A DNA stretch of 7,388 nucleotides, taken from contig JAMORN010000134.1 of assembly GCA_027063545.1 (NCBI GenBank), positions 1-7,388 on the forward strand, written 5' to 3'. This document shows positions 1 through 7,388 of this stretch, in pieces (position 1 is the stretch's first letter; each line of letters opens with the position of its first letter). Below the pieces are notes generated by a model. It did not search any database and was not told where the DNA came from. It saw only the letters and a program-made list of their open reading frames with translations. The translations under genes were made by a program, and so were the position numbers. This DNA comes from JAMORN01 sp027063545 [NCBI: bacterium]. GTDB taxonomy: Bacteria; JAMORN01.

Positions 1-308
1 TAGGTGAGAATGGAAAGTATCTTTCTGGAGGTGAAAGACAAAGGGTTGTTCTTGCTAGAACAATAATTCCAGATAAAGATTTTATCATATTTGATGAGCC
101 AACATCAGCTTTAGATACAAAAACAGAAGATAAAGTAATAGATTATTTATTCAATGAAAAAAAGGATAAAACAATAATTATTGTAACCCATAAATTTAAA
201 CTTATAAAATATACAAATAAAGTATTAATGATAGAAAATGGTAAAGTTAAGTATTGGGGTGATACAGAAAAGTTTATAGAACAAAACAAAACAGAGCTTG
301 GGATATGA
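1..308 (+). CDS. ABC transporter ATP-binding domain, C-terminal part (5' end outside window)
   Basis: This is the last 101 codons of an ATP-hydrolysing ABC domain; the first full codon is at position 3 and TGA is at 306-308. In order it shows the ABC signature LSGGERQR (nt 21-44), a Walker B strand ending FDEP with Asp at nt 93-95 and catalytic Glu just after, the D-loop SALD, and the H-loop histidine in IVTHK (nt 189-191). The tail (VLMIENGKVKYWGD then EKFIEQ) resembles the end of exporter-type ATPases, in which the nucleotide-binding domain follows a membrane domain. The Walker A motif and any membrane segments lie outside the window, so substrate and direction of transport cannot be told. 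It overlaps the helicase start by 4 bases, implying one transcript. The ABC ATPase call is secure; the exporter subtype is an inference. Confidence 0.93.
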   Translation, partial: GENGKYLSGGERQRVVLARTIIPDKDFIIFDEPTSALDTKTEDKVIDYLFNEKKDKTIIIVTHKFKLIKYTNKVLMIENGKVKYWGDTEKFIEQNKTELGI

Positions 309-2314
309 TTGATTATAGAAAAGAATTGAATTCTCAGCAGTATGAGGCAGTTACAACTATATGGGGCCCTATTTTTGTATTTGCTGGTGCAGGAAGTGGT
401 AAAACAAAGGTTTTAACTTATAGGATTGCTTATCTAATAGAAAAAGGTTATGCTTCTCCTTCTGAGATTTTAGGTATTACTTTTACCAATAAAGCAGCAA
501 AAGAGATGAAGGAAAGAGTAGGAAGGTTAGTTGGGAATAAAGCTTCTGATATATTTTTATCTACATTTCATTCTTTTTGTTTGAAAGTATTAAGGGAGGA
601 TATAGAAAAAACAGGAATTTATCATAATAATTTCGTTATATATGATGAAACTGATCAATTATCTTTAATAACAAAAATAATAAAAGAAAACTATGCTGAC
701 ACGGGTTATTCACCTAGGGAAATGAAAAGGCTTATTTCTCATATAAAATCTAATATAGATAGAAAAGAAAAAGATTCAGATGATTTAGTTTATAGAATAT
801 ATAGAGCTTACCAAAAATCATTGATTAGTTATAATGCTTTAGATTTTGATGACTTATTATTAATAACCTATAGACTATTTAAAGAAAATGAAGAAATAAG
901 AAAAAAATGGGCTTCAAAATTTAAGTTTATTATGATAGATGAGTTTCAAGACACATCGCTTTTGCAATTTAATTTAATTTATGAGATAGCAAAAGATCAT
1001 GAAAATATTATGGTAGTTGGTGATGATGATCAAACAATATACTCATGGCGGGGAGCAAATATTGATAATATATTTAATTTTGAAAAAATATTTAAAAAAG
1101 CAAAAATTATAAAATTGGAAAGAAACTATAGATCAACACAAGAGATTTTAAATGTAGCAAATAGTGTTATAGAAAAAAATATAAAGAGAACTCCTAAAAA
1201 ATTATGGAATGATCAAAAAGGCGAAAAGGTTGAGATAAGAATATATCAGACAGAAGAAGAAGAGGCAGAGGATATAATAAGTGAGATTTTTAAGCAGGTT
1301 GTTATAAAGAAAAATTTTAAATTTTCAGATATAGCAATATTATATAGGGCAAATCATAATTCTAGAATCTTTGAAGAGTACGCCCGTTTAAAACAAATTC
1401 CATATAAAGTTGTTGGTGGTAAAGATTTCTATTCAAGAAAAGAAATTGTTTATGCTTTGTCTTATTTAAAAGTATTAGTAAATCCTTTAGATACCTTATC
1501 ATTAATAAGAGTATTAGAGTATCCTCCTAAAGGTATAGGAGAGGTAACTATAAATAGGATAAATGAATATATAAAAGAGAAAAAGATTAGTTTTTTTGAG
1601 GGGTTAAATCAGATTGATTTTATAAATAATATTCCAGATAGGGCAAAAAGGGCTATAAAAGAACTTTTGGACCTATTTAATATTGCAAAAGAATATTTTG
1701 ATAGACTTGAAAGTTGGCAAGATGCTTTAGATAGATATATGAGTCTTGCAGGTGTTTATGATTATATTAAAGTTTCAGAGAAAGAGAAGTCAAAGGCAGA
1801 AAAGAGGATTTTAAACATAAAAGAATTGGGGAGAAGTTTAGACTTATTTAAAAGTAGAAGTAAGAATAAGAGTTTAAAAGGATTTTTAGATATGATTTCT
1901 CTTATCTCTGATTCAGATATTTCAAAGGGTAAAAAAGAAGGAATAACTTTAATGACAGTTCATGCTTCAAAAGGACTTGAATTTCCATTTGTAATACTTC
2001 CTTTAATGGTTGATGGGAATTTTCCAAGTAGAAAGAGTATAGAAGAAGATGAGAAAGCAATAGAAGAGGAGAGAAGATTATTTTACGTGGCAATAACAAG
2101 AGCAAAAAGGAAGCTTCTTATTACAGCCTTTTTAAATAAAATGATAAGAGGGAATTTTATTCCTCAGGAGATTTCGCCTTTTATTGAGGAAGCAAAAAAA
2201 AGCAATGCTGTAGAAATAAAATTTTTGGGAGAGTTTAAGAATAATAGATATAATAAGTTTGATAGAGAATTAAAAAGTAAGATTAAGGATATTTTATCAT
2301 CACTGGGAGATTAG
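305..2314 (+). CDS. uvrD: UvrD/Rep/PcrA-family superfamily 1A DNA helicase
   Basis: This is a 3'-5' ATP-dependent DNA helicase of 669 residues, close to the length of E. coli Rep. Visible motifs in order are: Q-motif LNSQQYEAV (8-16), Walker A AGAGSGKT (27-34), motif Ia ITFTNKAAKEM (about 58-68), Walker B IDEFQDTS with Asp212 and Glu213, motif III GDDDQTIYSWRGA, motif IV RNYRS, motif V TVHASKGLEF (551-560) and motif VI EERRLFYVAITRAKR with the arginine finger near 599. All catalytic motifs are intact. Family members unwind DNA in repair, replication restart and removal of bound proteins. The DDDQ-IYSWRGA stretch and the absence of a long C-terminal tail look more Rep-like than UvrD-like, so the symbol is a family label. 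The ATG overlaps the TGA of the upstream ABC gene (ATGA). No good Shine-Dalgarno is visible, so translational coupling is likely. It ends in TAG with no obvious terminator. Confidence 0.95.
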   Translation: MIDYRKELNSQQYEAVTTIWGPIFVFAGAGSGKTKVLTYRIAYLIEKGYASPSEILGITFTNKAAKEMKERVGRLVGNKASDIFLSTFHSFCLKVLREDIEKTGIYHNNFVIYDETDQLSLITKIIKENYADTGYSPREMKRLISHIKSNIDRKEKDSDDLVYRIYRAYQKSLISYNALDFDDLLLITYRLFKENEEIRKKWASKFKFIMIDEFQDTSLLQFNLIYEIAKDHENIMVVGDDDQTIYSWRGANIDNIFNFEKIFKKAKIIKLERNYRSTQEILNVANSVIEKNIKRTPKKLWNDQKGEKVEIRIYQTEEEEAEDIISEIFKQVVIKKNFKFSDIAILYRANHNSRIFEEYARLKQIPYKVVGGKDFYSRKEIVYALSYLKVLVNPLDTLSLIRVLEYPPKGIGEVTINRINEYIKEKKISFFEGLNQIDFINNIPDRAKRAIKELLDLFNIAKEYFDRLESWQDALDRYMSLAGVYDYIKVSEKEKSKAEKRILNIKELGRSLDLFKSRSKNKSLKGFLDMISLISDSDISKGKKEGITLMTVHASKGLEFPFVILPLMVDGNFPSRKSIEEDEKAIEEERRLFYVAITRAKRKLLITAFLNKMIRGNFIPQEISPFIEEAKKSNAVEIKFLGEFKNNRYNKFDRELKSKIKDILSSLGD

Positions 2315-2381
2315 TAGGAGAAAATGAATAGTTCATATTTAATTTTGATTTAAAAAAGATAATATAAATTAGGTTTTCCCT

Positions 2382-2410
2382 TTGTAAAACTCCATAAATT
2401 TTTTTATATT
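2382..2410 (+). promoter_or_regulatory. Candidate sigma-70 type promoter for rpsU
   Basis: TTGTAA (2382-2387) and TATATT (2405-2410) are separated by exactly 17 bases. This matches a housekeeping promoter closely enough to propose a start of transcription near 2417, about 45 bases before rpsU. In DNA this AT-rich such matches also arise by chance. The position, in the only sizeable gap between the helicase gene and rpsU, supports the call. Confidence 0.4.
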
Positions 2411-2432
2411 TTTCTACAATAAAAATTAAAAA

Positions 2433-2469
2433 TCCCACAAAAACGGAAGGGAGGTGAGTTTAAGTGGGA
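2433..2469 (+). promoter_or_regulatory. rpsU translation start region: very strong Shine-Dalgarno inside a possible start-codon hairpin
   Basis: The purine tract AAGGGAGGTGA (2447-2457) contains GGAGGTGA, an eight-base perfect complement to the usual 3' end of 16S rRNA, and lies 6 bases before the GTG start. In addition, TCCCAC (2433-2438) is perfectly complementary to GTGGGA (2464-2469), which includes the start codon. Pairing would close a 25-base loop holding the Shine-Dalgarno. The ribosome binding site is certain; the hairpin and any control by it are inference. Confidence 0.45.
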
Positions 2470-2670
2470 GAGATAGGAATTATTGTTAGAGAAGGTGAAG
2501 ACTTTGAAAAGGCTTTTAAAAGATTTAAAAGGGTATTTGAAAGAGCAGGAGTAATTAGACAACTTAAAAGACACATGTATTATGAAAAGCCTTCAGAAAT
2601 CAAAAAGAAAAAAATGAATGCATTAAAAAGAGAGTTAGAACAACTAAGAAAAAGAAACAAAAAGAAATAA
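2464..2670 (+). CDS. rpsU: Small ribosomal subunit protein bS21
   Basis: bS21 (68 residues) is a small, very basic protein of the 30S subunit that sits near the 3' end of 16S rRNA and helps in translation initiation. The family signature is clear: an acidic N-terminal strand (VREGEDFEKA), the FKRFKR-type helix with AG following (ERAGVI), then YYEKPSE and a Lys/Arg-rich C-terminal helix. The GTG start at 2464 is chosen because the strong Shine-Dalgarno at 2447-2457 is 6 bases away and the protein then has family length. It appears to be a single-gene unit: a candidate promoter lies upstream and an intrinsic terminator begins 10 bases after the stop. The middle reads HMYYEKPS where many homologues have KREHYEKPS, a minor difference. 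Confidence 0.95.
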   Translation: MGEIGIIVREGEDFEKAFKRFKRVFERAGVIRQLKRHMYYEKPSEIKKKKMNALKRELEQLRKRNKKK

Positions 2671-2680
2671 TATTAAAATA

Positions 2681-2705
2681 CCCTGCCAATTTATGGCAGG
2701 GTTTT
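2681..2705 (+). terminator. Intrinsic terminator after rpsU
   Basis: An 8-bp perfect stem, CCCTGCCA (2681-2688) with TGGCAGGG (2694-2701), closes a 5-base loop and is followed by TTTT. It is GC-rich in an AT-rich setting and starts 10 bases after the rpsU stop. The T-run is short and hisI begins at 2714, so some read-through into hisI is possible. Confidence 0.85.
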
Positions 2706-2713
2706 GATTTATT

Positions 2714-3139
2714 ATGAGTTCCCAAAATTTCAAAGAATCTTCGAATTACGAAGAACTTATTAATATTTTAAAATTTCAAGATAATGGATTAATCCCGGTT
2801 ATTGTTGTAGATTATAAAACAAAAGATATATTAATGTTTGCATATATGAATAAAGACGCCCTTTATAATACATTAAAAACAGGTAAAATGACCTATTATT
2901 CTAGAAGTAGAAAAAAACTTTGGATAAAAGGTGAAACAAGTGGTAATTATCAATTAGTAAAAAGAGTTTTAGTAGATTGTGATGGCGATGTTCTTTTATT
3001 TTATGTTGAACAGAAAGGTGTAGCTTGTCATACAGGACATTATAGTTGTTTTTATAGAGAATATGATCCTAATAGTAAAGAAATAAAAGAAATTTCTCCT
3101 GTAATAATTGATCCTAAAGAACTTTATAAAAATTCCTAA
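2714..3139 (+). CDS. hisI: Phosphoribosyl-AMP cyclohydrolase
   Basis: HisI hydrolyses phosphoribosyl-AMP to ProFAR, the third step of histidine biosynthesis in the cytoplasm, as a zinc enzyme. At 141 residues this is the stand-alone form, without the HisE pyrophosphohydrolase domain found in fused HisIE proteins. The N-terminal KFQDNGLIPVIVVD and LMFAYMN are typical. The metal-site region is intact: Asp88, Cys89, Asp90 and Asp92 in DCDGD, then Cys105-His106-Thr-Gly and Cys112. YYSRSRKKLWIKGETSGN (61-78) is the substrate-binding segment. The ATG at 2714 is the only usable start: an in-frame TGA lies at 2705-2707 and the next Met is within the conserved domain. No Shine-Dalgarno is present; the nearest G-rich stretch is the 3' arm of the rpsU terminator, 12 bases upstream. 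No other his gene is in the window. rnhB follows after 8 bases. Confidence 0.95.
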   Translation: MSSQNFKESSNYEELINILKFQDNGLIPVIVVDYKTKDILMFAYMNKDALYNTLKTGKMTYYSRSRKKLWIKGETSGNYQLVKRVLVDCDGDVLLFYVEQKGVACHTGHYSCFYREYDPNSKEIKEISPVIIDPKELYKNS

Positions 3140-3147
3140 ATAAATTT

Positions 3148-3918
3148 ATGGATTTATCAAAAATCAATTTTAATATTATAGGCATAGACGAGGCTGGACG
3201 GGGATGTATTGCTGGAAGTTTATTTGTCACTGCTGTTTATATAGAAAAGGAGTTTATAGAAAAATTTAAATATTTAGATAAAATAAAAGATTCTAAAAAA
3301 CTTACAGAAAAAGAACGTTTTTTTTTATATAAAGAAATTGAAAAAACTTCAGGAATATATTATAAAATAAAAAAAATTACTCCTCAGGAAATAGATCAAT
3401 CAAATATTTTAAGAGTTACTTTAGAAGCTATGAAAGAAGTTGCTTTATCATTACTCAACACTATTTATAAGAAAAATAAGTCAAAAGAGAATTTTTTAAT
3501 ATATGTAGATGGTAATAAAGCTTTCAATCTTAAAAATTATATAGTTAAACCTATTATAAAAGGTGATAGTAAAATTCTACAAATTAGTTTAGCTTCTATT
3601 ATATCAAAAGTGAATAAAGATAAGGAATCTATAGAGTTACATAAATTATATCCTAATTATAATTTTAAAAAACATAAAGGATATGCCACAAAAGAACATT
3701 TATCTCTAATACAAAAAAACGGAATAATAAAAGGAATATATAGAGAGACTTATTTTCCTGTAAAAGAACTTAATTTTTCCAAGAAATATTTTTATTTCAA
3801 AGAAAAGATTTTGAACGGAGAAAACCAAGAATCCATTCTATTTGAAATAAATTTTTCTGAACTTTCTATAGATGAAAAACAAGCTCTAAATACACTTATT
3901 AAAAAAAAGTTTTCATAG
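3148..3918 (+). CDS. rnhB: Ribonuclease HII
   Basis: RNase HII cuts RNA in RNA-DNA hybrids and starts removal of single ribonucleotides misincorporated into DNA. The four catalytic acids are in place: Asp14 and Glu15 in GIDEAGRG, Asp121 in YVDGNKAF, and Asp158 in SKVNKDK. Also visible are the DSKKLT segment (48-53), the GRG motif (17-19) and YPNYNFKKHKGYATKEH (168-184). The usual HRxSF near the end of the core reads YRETYF (198-203) here, a modest change. At 256 residues it is longer than the common 200-220. The extra is mainly a C-terminal extension of about 48 residues (209-256) of unknown role. It follows hisI by 8 bases and probably shares its transcript. The spacer has no Shine-Dalgarno, and the ATG at 3148 is the first one that retains the whole conserved core. 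The identification is secure. Confidence 0.95.
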   Translation: MDLSKINFNIIGIDEAGRGCIAGSLFVTAVYIEKEFIEKFKYLDKIKDSKKLTEKERFFLYKEIEKTSGIYYKIKKITPQEIDQSNILRVTLEAMKEVALSLLNTIYKKNKSKENFLIYVDGNKAFNLKNYIVKPIIKGDSKILQISLASIISKVNKDKESIELHKLYPNYNFKKHKGYATKEHLSLIQKNGIIKGIYRETYFPVKELNFSKKYFYFKEKILNGENQESILFEINFSELSIDEKQALNTLIKKKFS

Positions 3919-3993
3919 TTTTTTCTTTTATAGAAAAATTTCAATTTTAATTTTTTTCAAAAATAAAGTGGAAAAATTTTTAAAAAAACTTAA
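3919..3993 (+). other. AT-rich spacer after rnhB, no gene seen
   Basis: All three forward frames are closed by stops and nothing resembles a coding piece. TTTTTC (3920-3925) and GAAAAA (3933-3938) could form a weak 6-bp hairpin, followed by T-rich sequence up to about 3957. This may serve as a poor terminator for hisI-rnhB, but the stem has only one G-C pair, so I do not call it firmly. Confidence 0.4.
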
Positions 3994-4065
3994 TTATGTA
4001 TTTATAACGATGTAGCTGGAGATCATCAAGAATGGCAAACTTTAATTTATGATAATAGTATATAA
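3994..4065 (+). pseudogene. Short fragment of a probable secreted or beta-sandwich protein
   Basis: Reading frame 1 between stops at 3991 and 4063 gives a 23-residue piece containing NDVAGDHQEWQTLIYDNS. The DHQEWQTLIYD pattern looks like real extracellular beta-sandwich protein, where a W-x-T-L/V strand is common. It has no start codon of its own and no ribosome binding site. It lies immediately before, and overlaps, the choice-of-anchor J remnant, which is read in frame 2. I infer it is the preceding part of the same decayed gene, separated by a frameshift near 4050-4075. It could instead be a chance open stretch. Confidence 0.35.
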
Positions 4066-4555
4066 TATATTATTTTCTACCTCTTTTGAAGAAGATAATT
4101 TGGATAGTTTTATTGTAATAGATCAAGATGGAGATGGTTATTCATGGACCATTGTAACAGATGATGCTCATACTGGTTAAGCTTCTGCCTACGTTGAATG
4201 GGATGATAATGCTCCTAATAATGATTGGTTAATTACACCTATAATTGATATTTCAGCAGGTGTTGATTCTTTAATTTTTTGGATTAAACCTTTTTCTTTT
4301 TATGAAGAAAAATTAGAAATTTTGGCTGTATCATTAACTAATAGTTTAGATTTAGATACATCCAATCCTGTTTCTATTACAACAATTACAAATGAGTCTC
4401 CTGATCAATGGAAAAGATATTCCATTTATATAGGAAATATTTTAAATTCTAACTTAAATCGTATAGCATTTAGATATATTTCAAATGATCAAATGTATAT
4501 CTATTTAGATGATATTCAAATAACAAAATCAACAGCTATAATAGGTAGATATTAA
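4049..4555 (+). pseudogene. Decayed choice-of-anchor J (cleaved-adhesin-like) domain protein, in-frame stop
   Basis: Frame 2 from the ATG at 4049 to TAA at 4553-4555 is open except for one TAA at 4178-4180. Across that stop the translation reads as one domain: TSFEEDNLDSF, DQDGDGYSWTIVTDDAHTG, stop, ASAYVEWDDNAPNNDWLITP, IIDIS, then DQWKRYSIYIGN, RIAFRYIS and YIYLDDIQI. This order (FEE start, DGDGYSW, a SAYVEW strand, NDWLITP, the IAFR strand, a final LDDIQI) is the pattern of choice-of-anchor J domains, which occur in secreted or surface proteins and act in binding. One substitution, such as TCA to TAA, would explain the stop. No signal peptide or anchor is visible and the N-terminal part is missing, so this is a gene remnant. 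The part after the stop has a TTG (4322) that could act as a start, but no convincing binding site precedes it. A terminator follows 9 bases after the final stop. Confidence 0.75.
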
Positions 4556-4563
4556 AACAATTT

Positions 4564-4605
4564 TGCCATTTTCAAGGAGCCTTATAGAGGCTCCTTTTTT
4601 TGGCA
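4564..4605 (+). terminator. Strong intrinsic terminator before the flagellar operon
   Basis: AAGGAGCC (4574-4581) pairs perfectly with GGCTCCTT (4589-4596) around a 7-base loop and runs into a T-tract (4595-4601). An outer pair, TGCCA (4564-4568) with TGGCA (4601-4605), could extend the stem beyond a small T-rich internal loop. It closes the transcription unit of the decayed gene and insulates the flagellar operon. The outer arm coincides with the -24 element of the next promoter. Confidence 0.88.
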
Positions 4606-4616
4606 TTTATATTGCA
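4601..4616 (+). promoter_or_regulatory. Sigma-54 (RpoN) -24/-12 promoter for flgJ-flgN-flgK
   Basis: TGGCA (4601-4605) and TTGCA (4612-4616) match the RpoN consensus TGGCAC-N5-TTGCA. The invariant GG (4602-4603) and GC (4614-4615) are exactly 12 bases apart, as required. The only departures lie in the less conserved bases after TGGCA. Transcription would start near 4626, giving a leader of about 28 bases before flgJ. Sigma-54 promoters need an NtrC-type activator ATPase, and many bacteria control middle flagellar genes this way. No activator site could be identified. Confidence 0.82.
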
Positions 4617-4653
4617 TCTCTATAAAAAAAGCAGAAAAAAATAGAGGTGCATA

Positions 4654-5454
4654 ATGCAGAAGTTATCAAATACTACTCATATTAATTCAGTAGAGTATAA
4701 AGAATTAGAGAAATACAAAAAAATAAAGAAAATAGGTGATGATTTTGAAACTTTTTTTATTTCTTTTCTTTTAAATAATATATCTAAAAATATAGGAAGC
4801 TCTGGTTATTTACCATTAACTACAGAAGGGAAAATATATAGATCTTGGTTCTATGATGCTATAGCAAAAGAAATAGCAAAAAGTTATGATTTTCATATAA
4901 GTGAAAATATTCAAAAAGAGTTATCAGAAATAGAAAAATTAGATTATAATAAACTTAGAGAACTTGAAAGGAAAAAATTTCTTGATATAGAAATTATTCC
5001 AAGAAAAAATTTCTCTATTAATGAAAATGTTCTTTATTCTCATATAGAAAATGTAATAGAAAGAGTTTCAAAAAAGTATGGAATAAGAAAATCTTTAATA
5101 AAGGCAATAATAAAAGTAGAATCAAATTTTAATCCTTATGCAATTTCTTCTAAAGGTGCAAAAGGACTAATGCAGCTTATGGATTCAACCGCTAAAGATT
5201 TAGGTGTAAAAAATGTTTGGTCTATAGTCGATAATATAGAAGGAGGAGTAAAATATTTAAGATCTTTAATAGATAGATTTGGTGATGAAAAATTAGCTTT
5301 GGCTGCATATAATGCTGGTCCAGGAAATGTAATAAAATATGGAAATAGAATTCCTCCATTTAGGGAGACACAAAATTATGTAAATAAAGTTTTGTATTGG
5401 GATAAATATTATAAGGAGAAGGAAAATGAAACAAGAGAATTTGCAGGAGATTAA
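4654..5454 (+). CDS. flgJ: FlgJ-type rod-binding protein fused to a lytic transglycosylase domain
   Basis: This 266-residue protein has two parts. Residues 29-78 resemble the FlgJ rod-capping domain: FETFFISFLLNNI, then IYRSWFYDAIAKEIAKS. Residues about 127-250 are a family 1 (SLT) lytic transglycosylase domain: KYGIRKSLIKAIIKVESNF with catalytic Glu156, SSKGAKGLMQLM (165-176), AYNAGPGNV (218-226) and the closing ETQNYVNKVL. Such enzymes cut the glycan strands of peptidoglycan, here presumably to let the rod pass through the wall. The classical enterobacterial FlgJ carries a glucosaminidase domain instead. No Sec signal peptide is seen, consistent with export by the flagellar apparatus. Start chosen: ATG with GAGGTG (4644-4649) 4 bases upstream. 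It is first in the operon behind the sigma-54 promoter, and its 3' end overlaps flgN by 29 bases. The transglycosylase call is secure; the FlgJ N-domain is well supported by pattern and context. Confidence 0.9.
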   Translation: MQKLSNTTHINSVEYKELEKYKKIKKIGDDFETFFISFLLNNISKNIGSSGYLPLTTEGKIYRSWFYDAIAKEIAKSYDFHISENIQKELSEIEKLDYNKLRELERKKFLDIEIIPRKNFSINENVLYSHIENVIERVSKKYGIRKSLIKAIIKVESNFNPYAISSKGAKGLMQLMDSTAKDLGVKNVWSIVDNIEGGVKYLRSLIDRFGDEKLALAAYNAGPGNVIKYGNRIPPFRETQNYVNKVLYWDKYYKEKENETREFAGD

Positions 5455-5932
5455 TAAGTTATTCAAAAAATTACAAGAGCTTAAAGAATTATATCAAGAA
5501 TTTTTAGAAGTTCTCCTAAAAGAAAGAGAAATGATATTAAATAATAAATTGGATAATTATATAGAGCTTTTAAATACCAAAAACTTTTTAGCAGAAAAAA
5601 TAGATGTTCTAAATAAACAATTAGATGAAATTTTCGAATCTGTAAGAAATATTCTTTCTTTAAATGAAATTAAAATCCCTAATATAATAGAAAAATTACC
5701 AGAAGAAGAAAAGGAAAAATTAAGAGTTTTAAGTAAAAACTTAAAAGTTATTTTAGAAAAAGTGTTAGAGGAAAATAAAATAAATATGGAGATAATAGAA
5801 AATAGAATAAAATTTTCAAATCAATTATTAAAGATTATAGAAAGTTCAAGTAGCAAAAATCTTTATTCTAATAATGGAGAAAAGAAAACTATAAAAGAAA
5901 AAGAGAAAAAGATAATAGACAGGAGGGTATAA
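5426..5932 (+). CDS. flgN: FlgN-family flagellar export chaperone
   Basis: FlgN proteins are cytoplasmic helical chaperones that bind FlgK and FlgL and hand them to the flagellar export gate. This 168-residue protein is almost entirely charged, Leu/Ile-heptad helix. The N-terminal LFKKLQELKELYQEFLEVLLKER, NNKLDNYIELLNTKN and EKIDVLNKQL follow the FlgN pattern (long helix, short turn with an acidic-residue position, second helix). The C-terminal 25 residues are Lys/Glu-rich and probably disordered. Although it starts inside flgJ (29-base overlap), AAGGAG (5413-5418) sits 7 bases before the ATG, which supports this start. It ends 1 base before flgK, the expected client. Sequence conservation in this family is low, so the call rests on helical pattern and on position directly before flgK. 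Confidence 0.87.
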   Translation: MKQENLQEINKLFKKLQELKELYQEFLEVLLKEREMILNNKLDNYIELLNTKNFLAEKIDVLNKQLDEIFESVRNILSLNEIKIPNIIEKLPEEEKEKLRVLSKNLKVILEKVLEENKINMEIIENRIKFSNQLLKIIESSSSKNLYSNNGEKKTIKEKEKKIIDRRV

Positions 5933-5933
5933 G

Positions 5934-7388
5934 ATGGGCTCAAATATATTTGGAATATTATATACAGGAATTTCAGGAATTATGGCAAGCCAAATAGCTA
6001 TGGATGTAACAGGGGATAATATTGCTAATGCTAATACAGATGGATATTCAAGAAAAAGATTGGAACAAGCAGCTGTATATAGAAGAGACCCTCAATTTGG
6101 TGCTATTGGTTATGGAGCTCATCCTGTAAAGATACAGAGATTAAGAGATTTTCTTTTAGATCAACATATAACATTGTTGACATCTGATTTAGGTTATTAT
6201 AAACAATTAGATGAAGGAACAAGTAGAGTAGAAGATATATTGGTAGAACCAGATGATACTGCTTTAAATAAATTTATTAATGATTTTTGGAATTCTTGGC
6301 AAGATTTAGCTAATAATCCTGATGATATGGCATCAAGAGCAGTAGTATTAAGAACGGCCAAATCGTTAATTAATAAATTTAAAACAATTGTAGGAAAACT
6401 CAGAGATCTTCAAGATGCTTTTAATGAAGAAATGGAATATACCATAAAACAAATCAATGAATATATCGGAGAAATATATAAACTTAATCGAGAAGTTGTT
6501 GCTATAGAAACAAATGGGCAAGTAGCAAATGATGCAAGAGATAGAAGAGATTTTTTAATAAAAAAGTTGGCAGAGCTTGTTGATATCACCTATTACGAAG
6601 ATGATAAAGGAGCATATAATGTTTTTATAGATGGAAATCTTGTGGTGTCAGCAACAGAAAAGATAGAAATAGCGCCAACATATGAGTATAAAAAAAGATA
6701 TGATAATACAACCCAAAAGATAATAAAAGTACAATTATCAACAACAAAAAAGGAACTAGATATAAGAGGAGGTAAATTAAGGGCATATATGGAGTTAAGA
6801 GATAATATTATAAATAAGAAATTGGAACAACTAGATAATTTAGCCTATAATATAAAGGAAAGGGTAAATGAACTTCATGAGAGTGGATATACACTTGATG
6901 GTTTGACAGGAATTCCATTTTTTGATCCTAAAAGTAAGGGTGCTATGGATTTGGAAATTTATCCAACTGTAGATCAAAATTTAAGAAATATAGCAGCGGC
7001 AACAGGTGGTTCCTCACTTCATGGAACAGATACTATTACAGTTCCTAATCCACCATATGGAGTTCCTTTAGAATTTGATACAACTCCTAGAGATAATCTA
7101 GTATATGATTCTGTAGTTTTAACTAATAGCTCTAATGGATATGTGTATAAAGAAGGTATAGATTATGTTGTAAACTATCAAGAAGGTACAATTGTTTTGC
7201 TTGCAGATTCTTTAATACCTCCGGGAGCAGTTTTGAATGTAGAATATGATTATAGAGTAGCGGATTTTAAAGGAGAAGGTGATGGATCAAATGCTTTAGC
7301 AATAGCAGGTTTAAGAGAAAAGAACACAATGGATGCTAATGTTTTTGGAGAATATACAAAAACATTTAATGAATTTTATGGTTCAATA
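5934..7388 (+). CDS. flgK: Flagellar hook-associated protein 1, N-terminal part (3' end outside window)
   Basis: FlgK forms the first junction ring between hook and filament and is exported by the flagellar type III apparatus. The 485 codons present run without a stop to the window edge. The N-terminus has the axial-protein signature: FGILYTGISGIMASQIAMDV, then NIANANTDGYSR (29-40). Later come a helix with WNSWQDLANNPDD, the FlgK-specific RDRRDFLIKKLAELVDITYYEDDKGAYNVFIDG, the GGKLRAYMELRD helix, and GDGSNALAIAGLR followed by a start of the C-terminal helical region. Between about residues 363 and 444 lies an extra beta-rich segment (LTNSSNGYVYKEGIDYVVNY, then GTIVLLADSLIPPGAVLNVE) that is not part of the minimal FlgK core and looks like an inserted surface domain. 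Start chosen: ATG with AGGAGGGT (5921-5928) 5 bases upstream, 1 base after the flgN stop. Confidence 0.95.
   Translation, partial: MGSNIFGILYTGISGIMASQIAMDVTGDNIANANTDGYSRKRLEQAAVYRRDPQFGAIGYGAHPVKIQRLRDFLLDQHITLLTSDLGYYKQLDEGTSRVEDILVEPDDTALNKFINDFWNSWQDLANNPDDMASRAVVLRTAKSLINKFKTIVGKLRDLQDAFNEEMEYTIKQINEYIGEIYKLNREVVAIETNGQVANDARDRRDFLIKKLAELVDITYYEDDKGAYNVFIDGNLVVSATEKIEIAPTYEYKKRYDNTTQKIIKVQLSTTKKELDIRGGKLRAYMELRDNIINKKLEQLDNLAYNIKERVNELHESGYTLDGLTGIPFFDPKSKGAMDLEIYPTVDQNLRNIAAATGGSSLHGTDTITVPNPPYGVPLEFDTTPRDNLVYDSVVLTNSSNGYVYKEGIDYVVNYQEGTIVLLADSLIPPGAVLNVEYDYRVADFKGEGDGSNALAIAGLREKNTMDANVFGEYTKTFNEFYGSI

What the first reader, a model, noticed from the sequence alone, without database searches (positions are those of the whole stretch)
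4601..4616. Near-consensus sigma-54 promoter driving a flgJ-flgN-flgK unit
TTGGCATTTATATTGCAT has the invariant GG and GC 12 bases apart and matches both halves of the RpoN consensus, in the right place and on the right strand. It predicts that this bacterium encodes RpoN and a flagellar NtrC-type activator, and that flgJ, flgN and flgK are expressed as a middle class. The element is seen in the sequence; the regulation is inferred from known flagellar hierarchies.
Basis: partly seen in the sequence, partly recalled or inferred. Interest (0 to 1): 0.6.

Follow-up and report, generated by a model that had tools for sequence, protein, structure and literature searches.

The report
Sigma-54 promoter for flagellar hook genes
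The marked stretch is very probably a genuine sigma-54 switch that turns on a set of flagellum genes; the same switch sits before the same genes in nearly all related loci examined from another bacterial phylum, so it is a well-supported but ordinary regulatory element.

Summary
In detail: TGGCATTTATATTGCA lies at 4601-4616 (+), with GG and GC at sigma-54 spacing, 38 nt before flgJ. The genome encodes RpoN and at least four GAFTGA activators, one just upstream of fliW-csrA. Exact TGGCAN6TTGCA occurs five times; four copies lie 31-56 nt before a start, three of them at flagellar operons. Hit counts alone prove nothing: a wrong-spacing control also exceeds expectation, but its ten hits lie inside ORFs. 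The strongest evidence is conservation: in a Fibrobacterota phylum sample, 26 of 28 usable flgJ loci carry the element on the coding strand before flgJ, 0.53 expected, none on the other strand. An RpoN-dependent flgJ promoter is already shown in Geobacter sulfurreducens (PMC2725144, passages). Both flagellin genes found have sigma-28-type sites; FliA was not found above cut-off. One oddity: the -12 element can pair with the Shine-Dalgarno region, so only transcripts starting near 4627 would leave it open; this is not conserved.

The parts
4601..4616 (+). sigma-54 (-24/-12) promoter element TGGCATTTATATTGCA; GG 4602-4603, GC 4614-4615
   Evidence: Sequence and shuffles; genome-wide placement; found at 26 of 28 usable flgJ loci of a related phylum
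4627..4627 (+). predicted transcription start (+1, counting C4615 as -12); inferred, not mapped
   Evidence: Geometry of sigma-54 promoters (recalled); no experiment
4574..4601 (+). intrinsic terminator of the upstream unit; its T tail runs into the -24 element
   Evidence: 10-pair stem 4574-4596 and T tail
4613..4623 (+). 5' arm of an 11-nt inverted repeat (91% complementary); overlaps the -12 element
4641..4651 (+). 3' arm of the inverted repeat; covers the Shine-Dalgarno-like AGAGGTG (4643-4649)
4654..5454 (+). flgJ-like gene, lytic transglycosylase (SLT) domain
   Evidence: Pfam PF01464 1.8e-29; 38% identical over residues 16-257 to the corresponding gene of a flagellar cluster in G055 (the cluster's gene names are read from the ORFs)
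5426..5932 (+). flgN, chaperone
   Evidence: Pfam PF05130 2.1e-16
5934..7388 (+). flgK, hook-associated protein 1, cut by the contig end
   Evidence: Pfam PF22638 8.9e-61 and PF00460 1.9e-10

Best explanation
4601-4616 is a sigma-54 promoter that drives flgJ-flgN-flgK. RpoN-holoenzyme binds the -24/-12 element and stays closed until an NtrC-type activator, most likely the GAFTGA protein encoded just upstream of fliW-csrA, opens it by ATP hydrolysis. Transcription then starts at about 4627. A terminator directly upstream separates the unit from the preceding genes. flgJ-flgN-flgK, the flgB operon and motE-like-fliK-flgD would form a middle class, and the flagellins a later, sigma-28-type class. 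Shown: the element, its placement and conservation, and the presence of RpoN and activators. Inferred: binding, activation, which activator, the start site and the timing.
For: The element and its spacing. rpoN over its NCBIfam cut-off, 419.6 against 277.35 bits. Seven PF00158 matches; four have the whole central domain and GAFTGA, a fifth strong one is cut by a contig end, two are weak. One of the four stands directly before fliW (103.8 bits, below the NCBIfam cut-off of 130) and csrA (over cut-off). Of 5 exact genome hits, 4 lie 31-56 nt before a start: flgB, flgJ, a motE-like gene followed by fliK and flgD, and a ParA-like gene. All 10 wrong-spacing N7 hits lie inside ORFs by the script. 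In the related phylum 26 of 28 usable flgJ loci have TGG[CT][AG]N6T[TG]GC on the coding strand, none on the reverse strand, 0.53 expected, other spacers 0 or 1 loci; a GYSR-type FlgK signature follows in 27 of the 28. Primer extension in Geobacter sulfurreducens put flgJ (GSU3046) under RpoN (PMC2725144, passages).
Against: No transcript data exist. Hit counts do not stand out (9 against 11.2 for TGGCN7TTGC; the wrong-spacing control has 10 against 3.7), and one N7 hit sits at the very start of an ORF (L003). One of the five exact hits lies inside a gene, and one precedes a ParA-like operon whose link to flagella is unknown. In the 29 best flgJ/SLT loci from other genomes (L020-L048; most probably include paralogous transglycosylases) no such element lies close before the gene; three have a hit elsewhere in the locus (L020, L041, L044). 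FliA was not found above cut-off.
Confidence: 0.95

Rival explanations
1. The motif is a chance match and flgJ-flgN-flgK is transcribed from a sigma-70-type promoter or by read-through.
For: Hit counts in the genome are no better than for control patterns. AT-rich DNA gives many sigma-70-like matches, here no more than in shuffles.
Against: 26 of 28 usable related loci hold the element on the coding strand, in loci of 39-60% GC. In all 26 and the window the second half is TTGC although the pattern also allowed TGGC; TGG was fixed by the pattern. At its threshold the scan found no sigma-70-like site on the + strand between the terminator and flgJ, and an intrinsic terminator stands directly upstream.
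Confidence: 0.03
2. It is a sigma-54 promoter with a second layer: the -12 element and the Shine-Dalgarno region form an 11-nt stem, so a transcript reaching in from upstream has its ribosome site closed, while the RpoN transcript starts inside the loop and is translated.
For: Inverted repeat 4613-4623/4641-4651. Folding gain from the pre-start segment -11.2 kcal/mol, p = 0.002 against 1000 shuffles of that segment. Fifth by energy and sixth by z-score of 231 ATG gene starts in the fetched contigs.
Against: Absent at flgB and the ParA-like promoter, weak at motE (p = 0.13), and not conserved: Fisher p = 0.054 over 26 related loci, 5 of 26 below 0.05. A terminator already guards the unit.
Confidence: 0.12

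Closest known systems
flgJ unit of Geobacter sulfurreducens (GSU3046 down to GSU3040), RpoN promoter shown by primer extension (PMC2725144, passages)
   Same: sigma-54 element before flgJ, with flgK in the same listed unit
   Different: That listing also has flgM, flgL and a carbon storage regulator; in the window's genome csrA lies on another contig behind an activator gene and fliW, and the window ends inside flgK
RpoN-dependent middle flagellar genes of Campylobacter jejuni (three-class order from the start of the abstract of PMC11187230 in the listing; gene lists recalled)
   Same: RpoN middle class and a later class; FliW and CsrA homologues are present here too
   Different: A distant lineage; the candidate activator here has an HTH_8 domain and no Pfam receiver domain, and its partner kinase is unknown
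flgJ-flgN-flgK clusters of the Fibrobacterota sample (L228-L255; extended loci L261-L265)
   Same: Same element before the same genes
   Different: There a sigma-54-type element also lies shortly before the flagellin gene in 4 of 5 extended loci (flagellin read from sequence); here the two flagellins found have sigma-28-type sites

Membership tests
sigma-54-dependent promoter | -24 GG and -12 GC at the standard spacing | tested here: met
   of spacers 3 to 9 only 6 is enriched at the related loci
sigma-54-dependent promoter | organism encodes RpoN | tested here: met
sigma-54-dependent promoter | organism encodes AAA+ activators with GAFTGA | tested here: met
   four proteins with whole central domain and GAFTGA; the one on C176 is open at a contig end and shows no HTH match
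sigma-54-dependent promoter | transcription start about 12 bases after GC and dependence on RpoN | not testable with these tools
   no RNA data
sigma-54 middle flagellar class | element lies before several flagellar operons | tested here: met
   exact before flgB, flgJ and a motE-like gene followed by fliK-flgD; one mismatch before flgH. The motE-like match is below Pfam's cut-off
sigma-54 middle flagellar class | late genes under sigma-28 | tested here: inconclusive
   TAAA-N16-CCGATA occurs twice in the 334 kb examined, both before the flagellins; other spacers give 0-2 hits, and the pattern was set after reading the two stretches. FliA not above cut-off
sigma-54 middle flagellar class | dedicated flagellar activator | tested here: inconclusive
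   activator gene directly upstream of fliW-csrA; its target is not shown

The most novel reading that the evidence does not exclude
The -12 element doubles as the 5' arm of a stem that closes the flgJ ribosome site. Read-through mRNA would then be silent and only RpoN-initiated mRNA translated: a promoter that makes translation depend on its own use, like the early/late ribosome-site switch recalled (no call) for phage T4.
Probability: 0.12. Interest if true: 0.5.

Novelty: new member of a known kind. Interest (0 to 1): 0.25.

Why it matters
It extends the RpoN middle class of flagellar genes to a lineage without close relatives among the genomes drawn. It also shows that one promoter, the one before flgJ-flgN-flgK, is kept in 26 of 28 usable loci of a phylum that the main texts of the two sigma-54 surveys I searched do not name (no 'fibrobacter' in PMC12316311, or PMC3162934; supplements not searched). 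The contrast at the flagellin gene, sigma-54-type in 4 of 5 extended Fibrobacterota loci but sigma-28-type here, gives a testable case of rewiring between middle and late classes.

Tried and rejected
The first genome scan used one base too many in the spacer; I kept it as a wrong-spacing control. A FlgK scan of genome contigs found no relative, so RecA was used to reach named relatives (75 loci). Its highest-identity hit, a partial match in MAG DP16D_bin.2, has no FlgK match; only 12 genomes, those of 12 of the 75 loci, were searched with FlgK, so 'best FlgK match' means best of those 12. Of the 59 genomes one is the window's own; the other 58 are listed only as 'same domain' and told little about this promoter. 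My first sigma-28 patterns had wrong spacing and missed the flagellin sites; the pattern was set after reading those stretches. A search for a shared enhancer box gave only a weak TTGATTTT-like box in part of the related loci. Conservation of the ribosome-site stem was tested and not found.

Rows dropped before the 28-locus count: L256 (FlgJ match split) and L257 (no upstream DNA), out of 30 loci returned. The 60 genomes were drawn evenly from a larger group; the other 30 had only weak transglycosylase matches. Hits that lie inside an ORF but near a start (for example 15 nt before an ORF on C189) were not counted as promoters.

Papers: PMC2725144, PMC12316311, PMC3162934 and PMC4814513 were seen as passages only; PMC11187230 only in a search listing. 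Searches bearing on novelty; their other papers were not opened.

Full report
What is there. The window is a whole contig (C134) of a 1.57 Mb, 355-contig assembly, 82.7% complete; the 334 kb of it that I fetched has 27% GC. The 58 other genomes drawn as relatives are listed only as 'same domain'. The window carries pcrA/uvrD, rpsU, a PRA-CH (hisI-like) gene and rnhB, a decayed ORF with a weak MAM match, an intrinsic terminator, and then flgJ-flgN-flgK. TGGCATTTATATTGCA lies between the terminator and flgJ at 4601-4616, 38 nt before the ATG.

Is it more than chance? Exact TGGCAN6TTGCA occurs 5 times in the assembly, 1.2 expected. Three of the five are intergenic by the script, 38-56 nt before flgB, flgJ and a motE-like gene followed by fliK and flgD; the motE-like match is below Pfam's cut-off. 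A fourth lies 31 nt before a ParA-like gene; the script called it 'inside' because of a 74-aa ORF that runs over a tRNA-Arg gene on the other strand and is probably spurious. The fifth lies inside a gene. Among the 43 hits with up to one mismatch, all of which lie in fetched contigs, one more is well placed, 84 nt before flgH, and one 110 nt before an M23 peptidase gene is doubtful. Counts alone prove nothing: TGGCN7TTGC gives 9 against 11.2 expected, and the wrong-spacing TGGCAN7TTGC gives 10 against 3.7. Placement differs: all 10 wrong-spacing hits lie inside ORFs by the script, one of them at the very start of an ORF.

Conservation. Among 12 genomes reached through RecA loci, the best FlgK matches are two Chitinispirillia MAGs, 38% identity over residues 5-485. 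Chitinispirillia is a class of the Fibrobacteres (title of PMC4814513). In both the element precedes flgJ-flgN-flgK. A search of 60 genomes of that phylum gave 30 flgJ loci from 30 genomes. Two were dropped (one split match, one without upstream DNA). Of the other 28, 26 have TGG[CT][AG]N6T[TG]GC on the coding strand within 260 nt before the FlgJ match; none has it on the reverse strand; 0.53 are expected from the rest of the same loci; spacers 3-5 and 7-9 give 0 or 1 loci. The two misses hold TGGCACACATCCTGC and CGGCACATGGCTTGC at a similar place. A short FlgK signature (GYSR type) follows in 27 of the 28.

Against this, the 29 best flgJ/SLT loci from other genomes show no such element close before the gene, with 3 hits elsewhere in the loci. 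Many of those are probably paralogous transglycosylases, so the comparison is weak.

Machinery. RpoN is encoded on C99. PF00158 has seven matches: four with the whole central domain and GAFTGA, one strong but cut by a contig end (C17), two weak. The activator gene on C143 is followed by fliW (below NCBIfam's cut-off) and csrA (over it); Pfam finds no receiver domain in it but an HTH_8 domain, which makes it the best candidate for the flagellar activator. The one on C149 sits behind a PAS histidine kinase gene. The flgB promoter probably drives a larger operon: flgB is cut at the end of C85, and a flgB-like C-terminal part followed by flgC and fliE-fliJ-like genes lies at the end of C156. Linking the two contigs is an inference, and those gene names rest on reading the sequences, apart from the rod-domain matches.

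Late class. TAAA-N16-CCGATA, a sigma-28-type pattern (recalled consensus, set after reading the two stretches), occurs twice in 334 kb, both times before the two flagellin genes found; other spacers give 0-2 hits, so the placement, not the count, is the evidence. FliA was not found above its cut-off; the best hit reads like a main sigma factor. In Fibrobacterota a sigma-54-type element lies shortly before the flagellin gene in 4 of 5 extended loci (flagellin read from sequence).

The stem. The segment 4613-4623, which includes the -12 TGC, can pair with 4641-4651, which holds the Shine-Dalgarno-like sequence. With a start at 4627 the 5' arm is not transcribed, so the site is free; a longer transcript would close it. 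The folding gain is -11.2 kcal/mol, p = 0.002, and the gene start ranks fifth of 231 by energy and sixth by z-score, two of the four with lower energy looking like terminators. It is not a general feature of these promoters nor of the phylum (Fisher p = 0.054, 5 of 26 loci below 0.05). I keep it as the most novel reading, at 0.12.

Known? Yes in kind. Primer extension has shown an RpoN promoter before flgJ of Geobacter sulfurreducens (PMC2725144, passages). Searches for Fibrobacter or Fibrobacteres with RpoN or sigma-54 and flagella listed no paper whose title or shown abstract deals with this promoter (listings only); this library lacks most subscription journals.

Noticed in passing
4061-4555 (+): Decayed ORF with a weak MAM-domain match in its last part and one in-frame stop, between rnhB and the terminator.
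   Followed up: partly
L063 (G000:C281) 1-4738, - strand: An exact sigma-54 element lies 31 nt before a ParA-like gene that is followed by four genes without a significant Pfam match; its link to flagella is unknown.
   Followed up: partly
L126:2286 and L136:2659 (+): Sigma-28-type sites before both flagellin genes found, while FliA itself was not found above cut-off in the 82.7% complete assembly.
   Followed up: partly
L262:8148, L263:8489, L264:8766, L265:8841: In these Fibrobacterota loci a sigma-54-type element also lies shortly before the flagellin gene, unlike in the window's genome.
   Followed up: partly
L237-L240, L242, L243, L245, L247, L250, upstream of the element: A TTGATT/CTGATT/TTGAAA box sits 23-24 nt before the -24 element in these 9 of 26 related loci; role unknown, absent in the window.
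   Followed up: no
L127 (G000:C261) about 2268-2310 (+): Strong stem that would cover the Shine-Dalgarno sequence of an unrelated gene.
   Followed up: no
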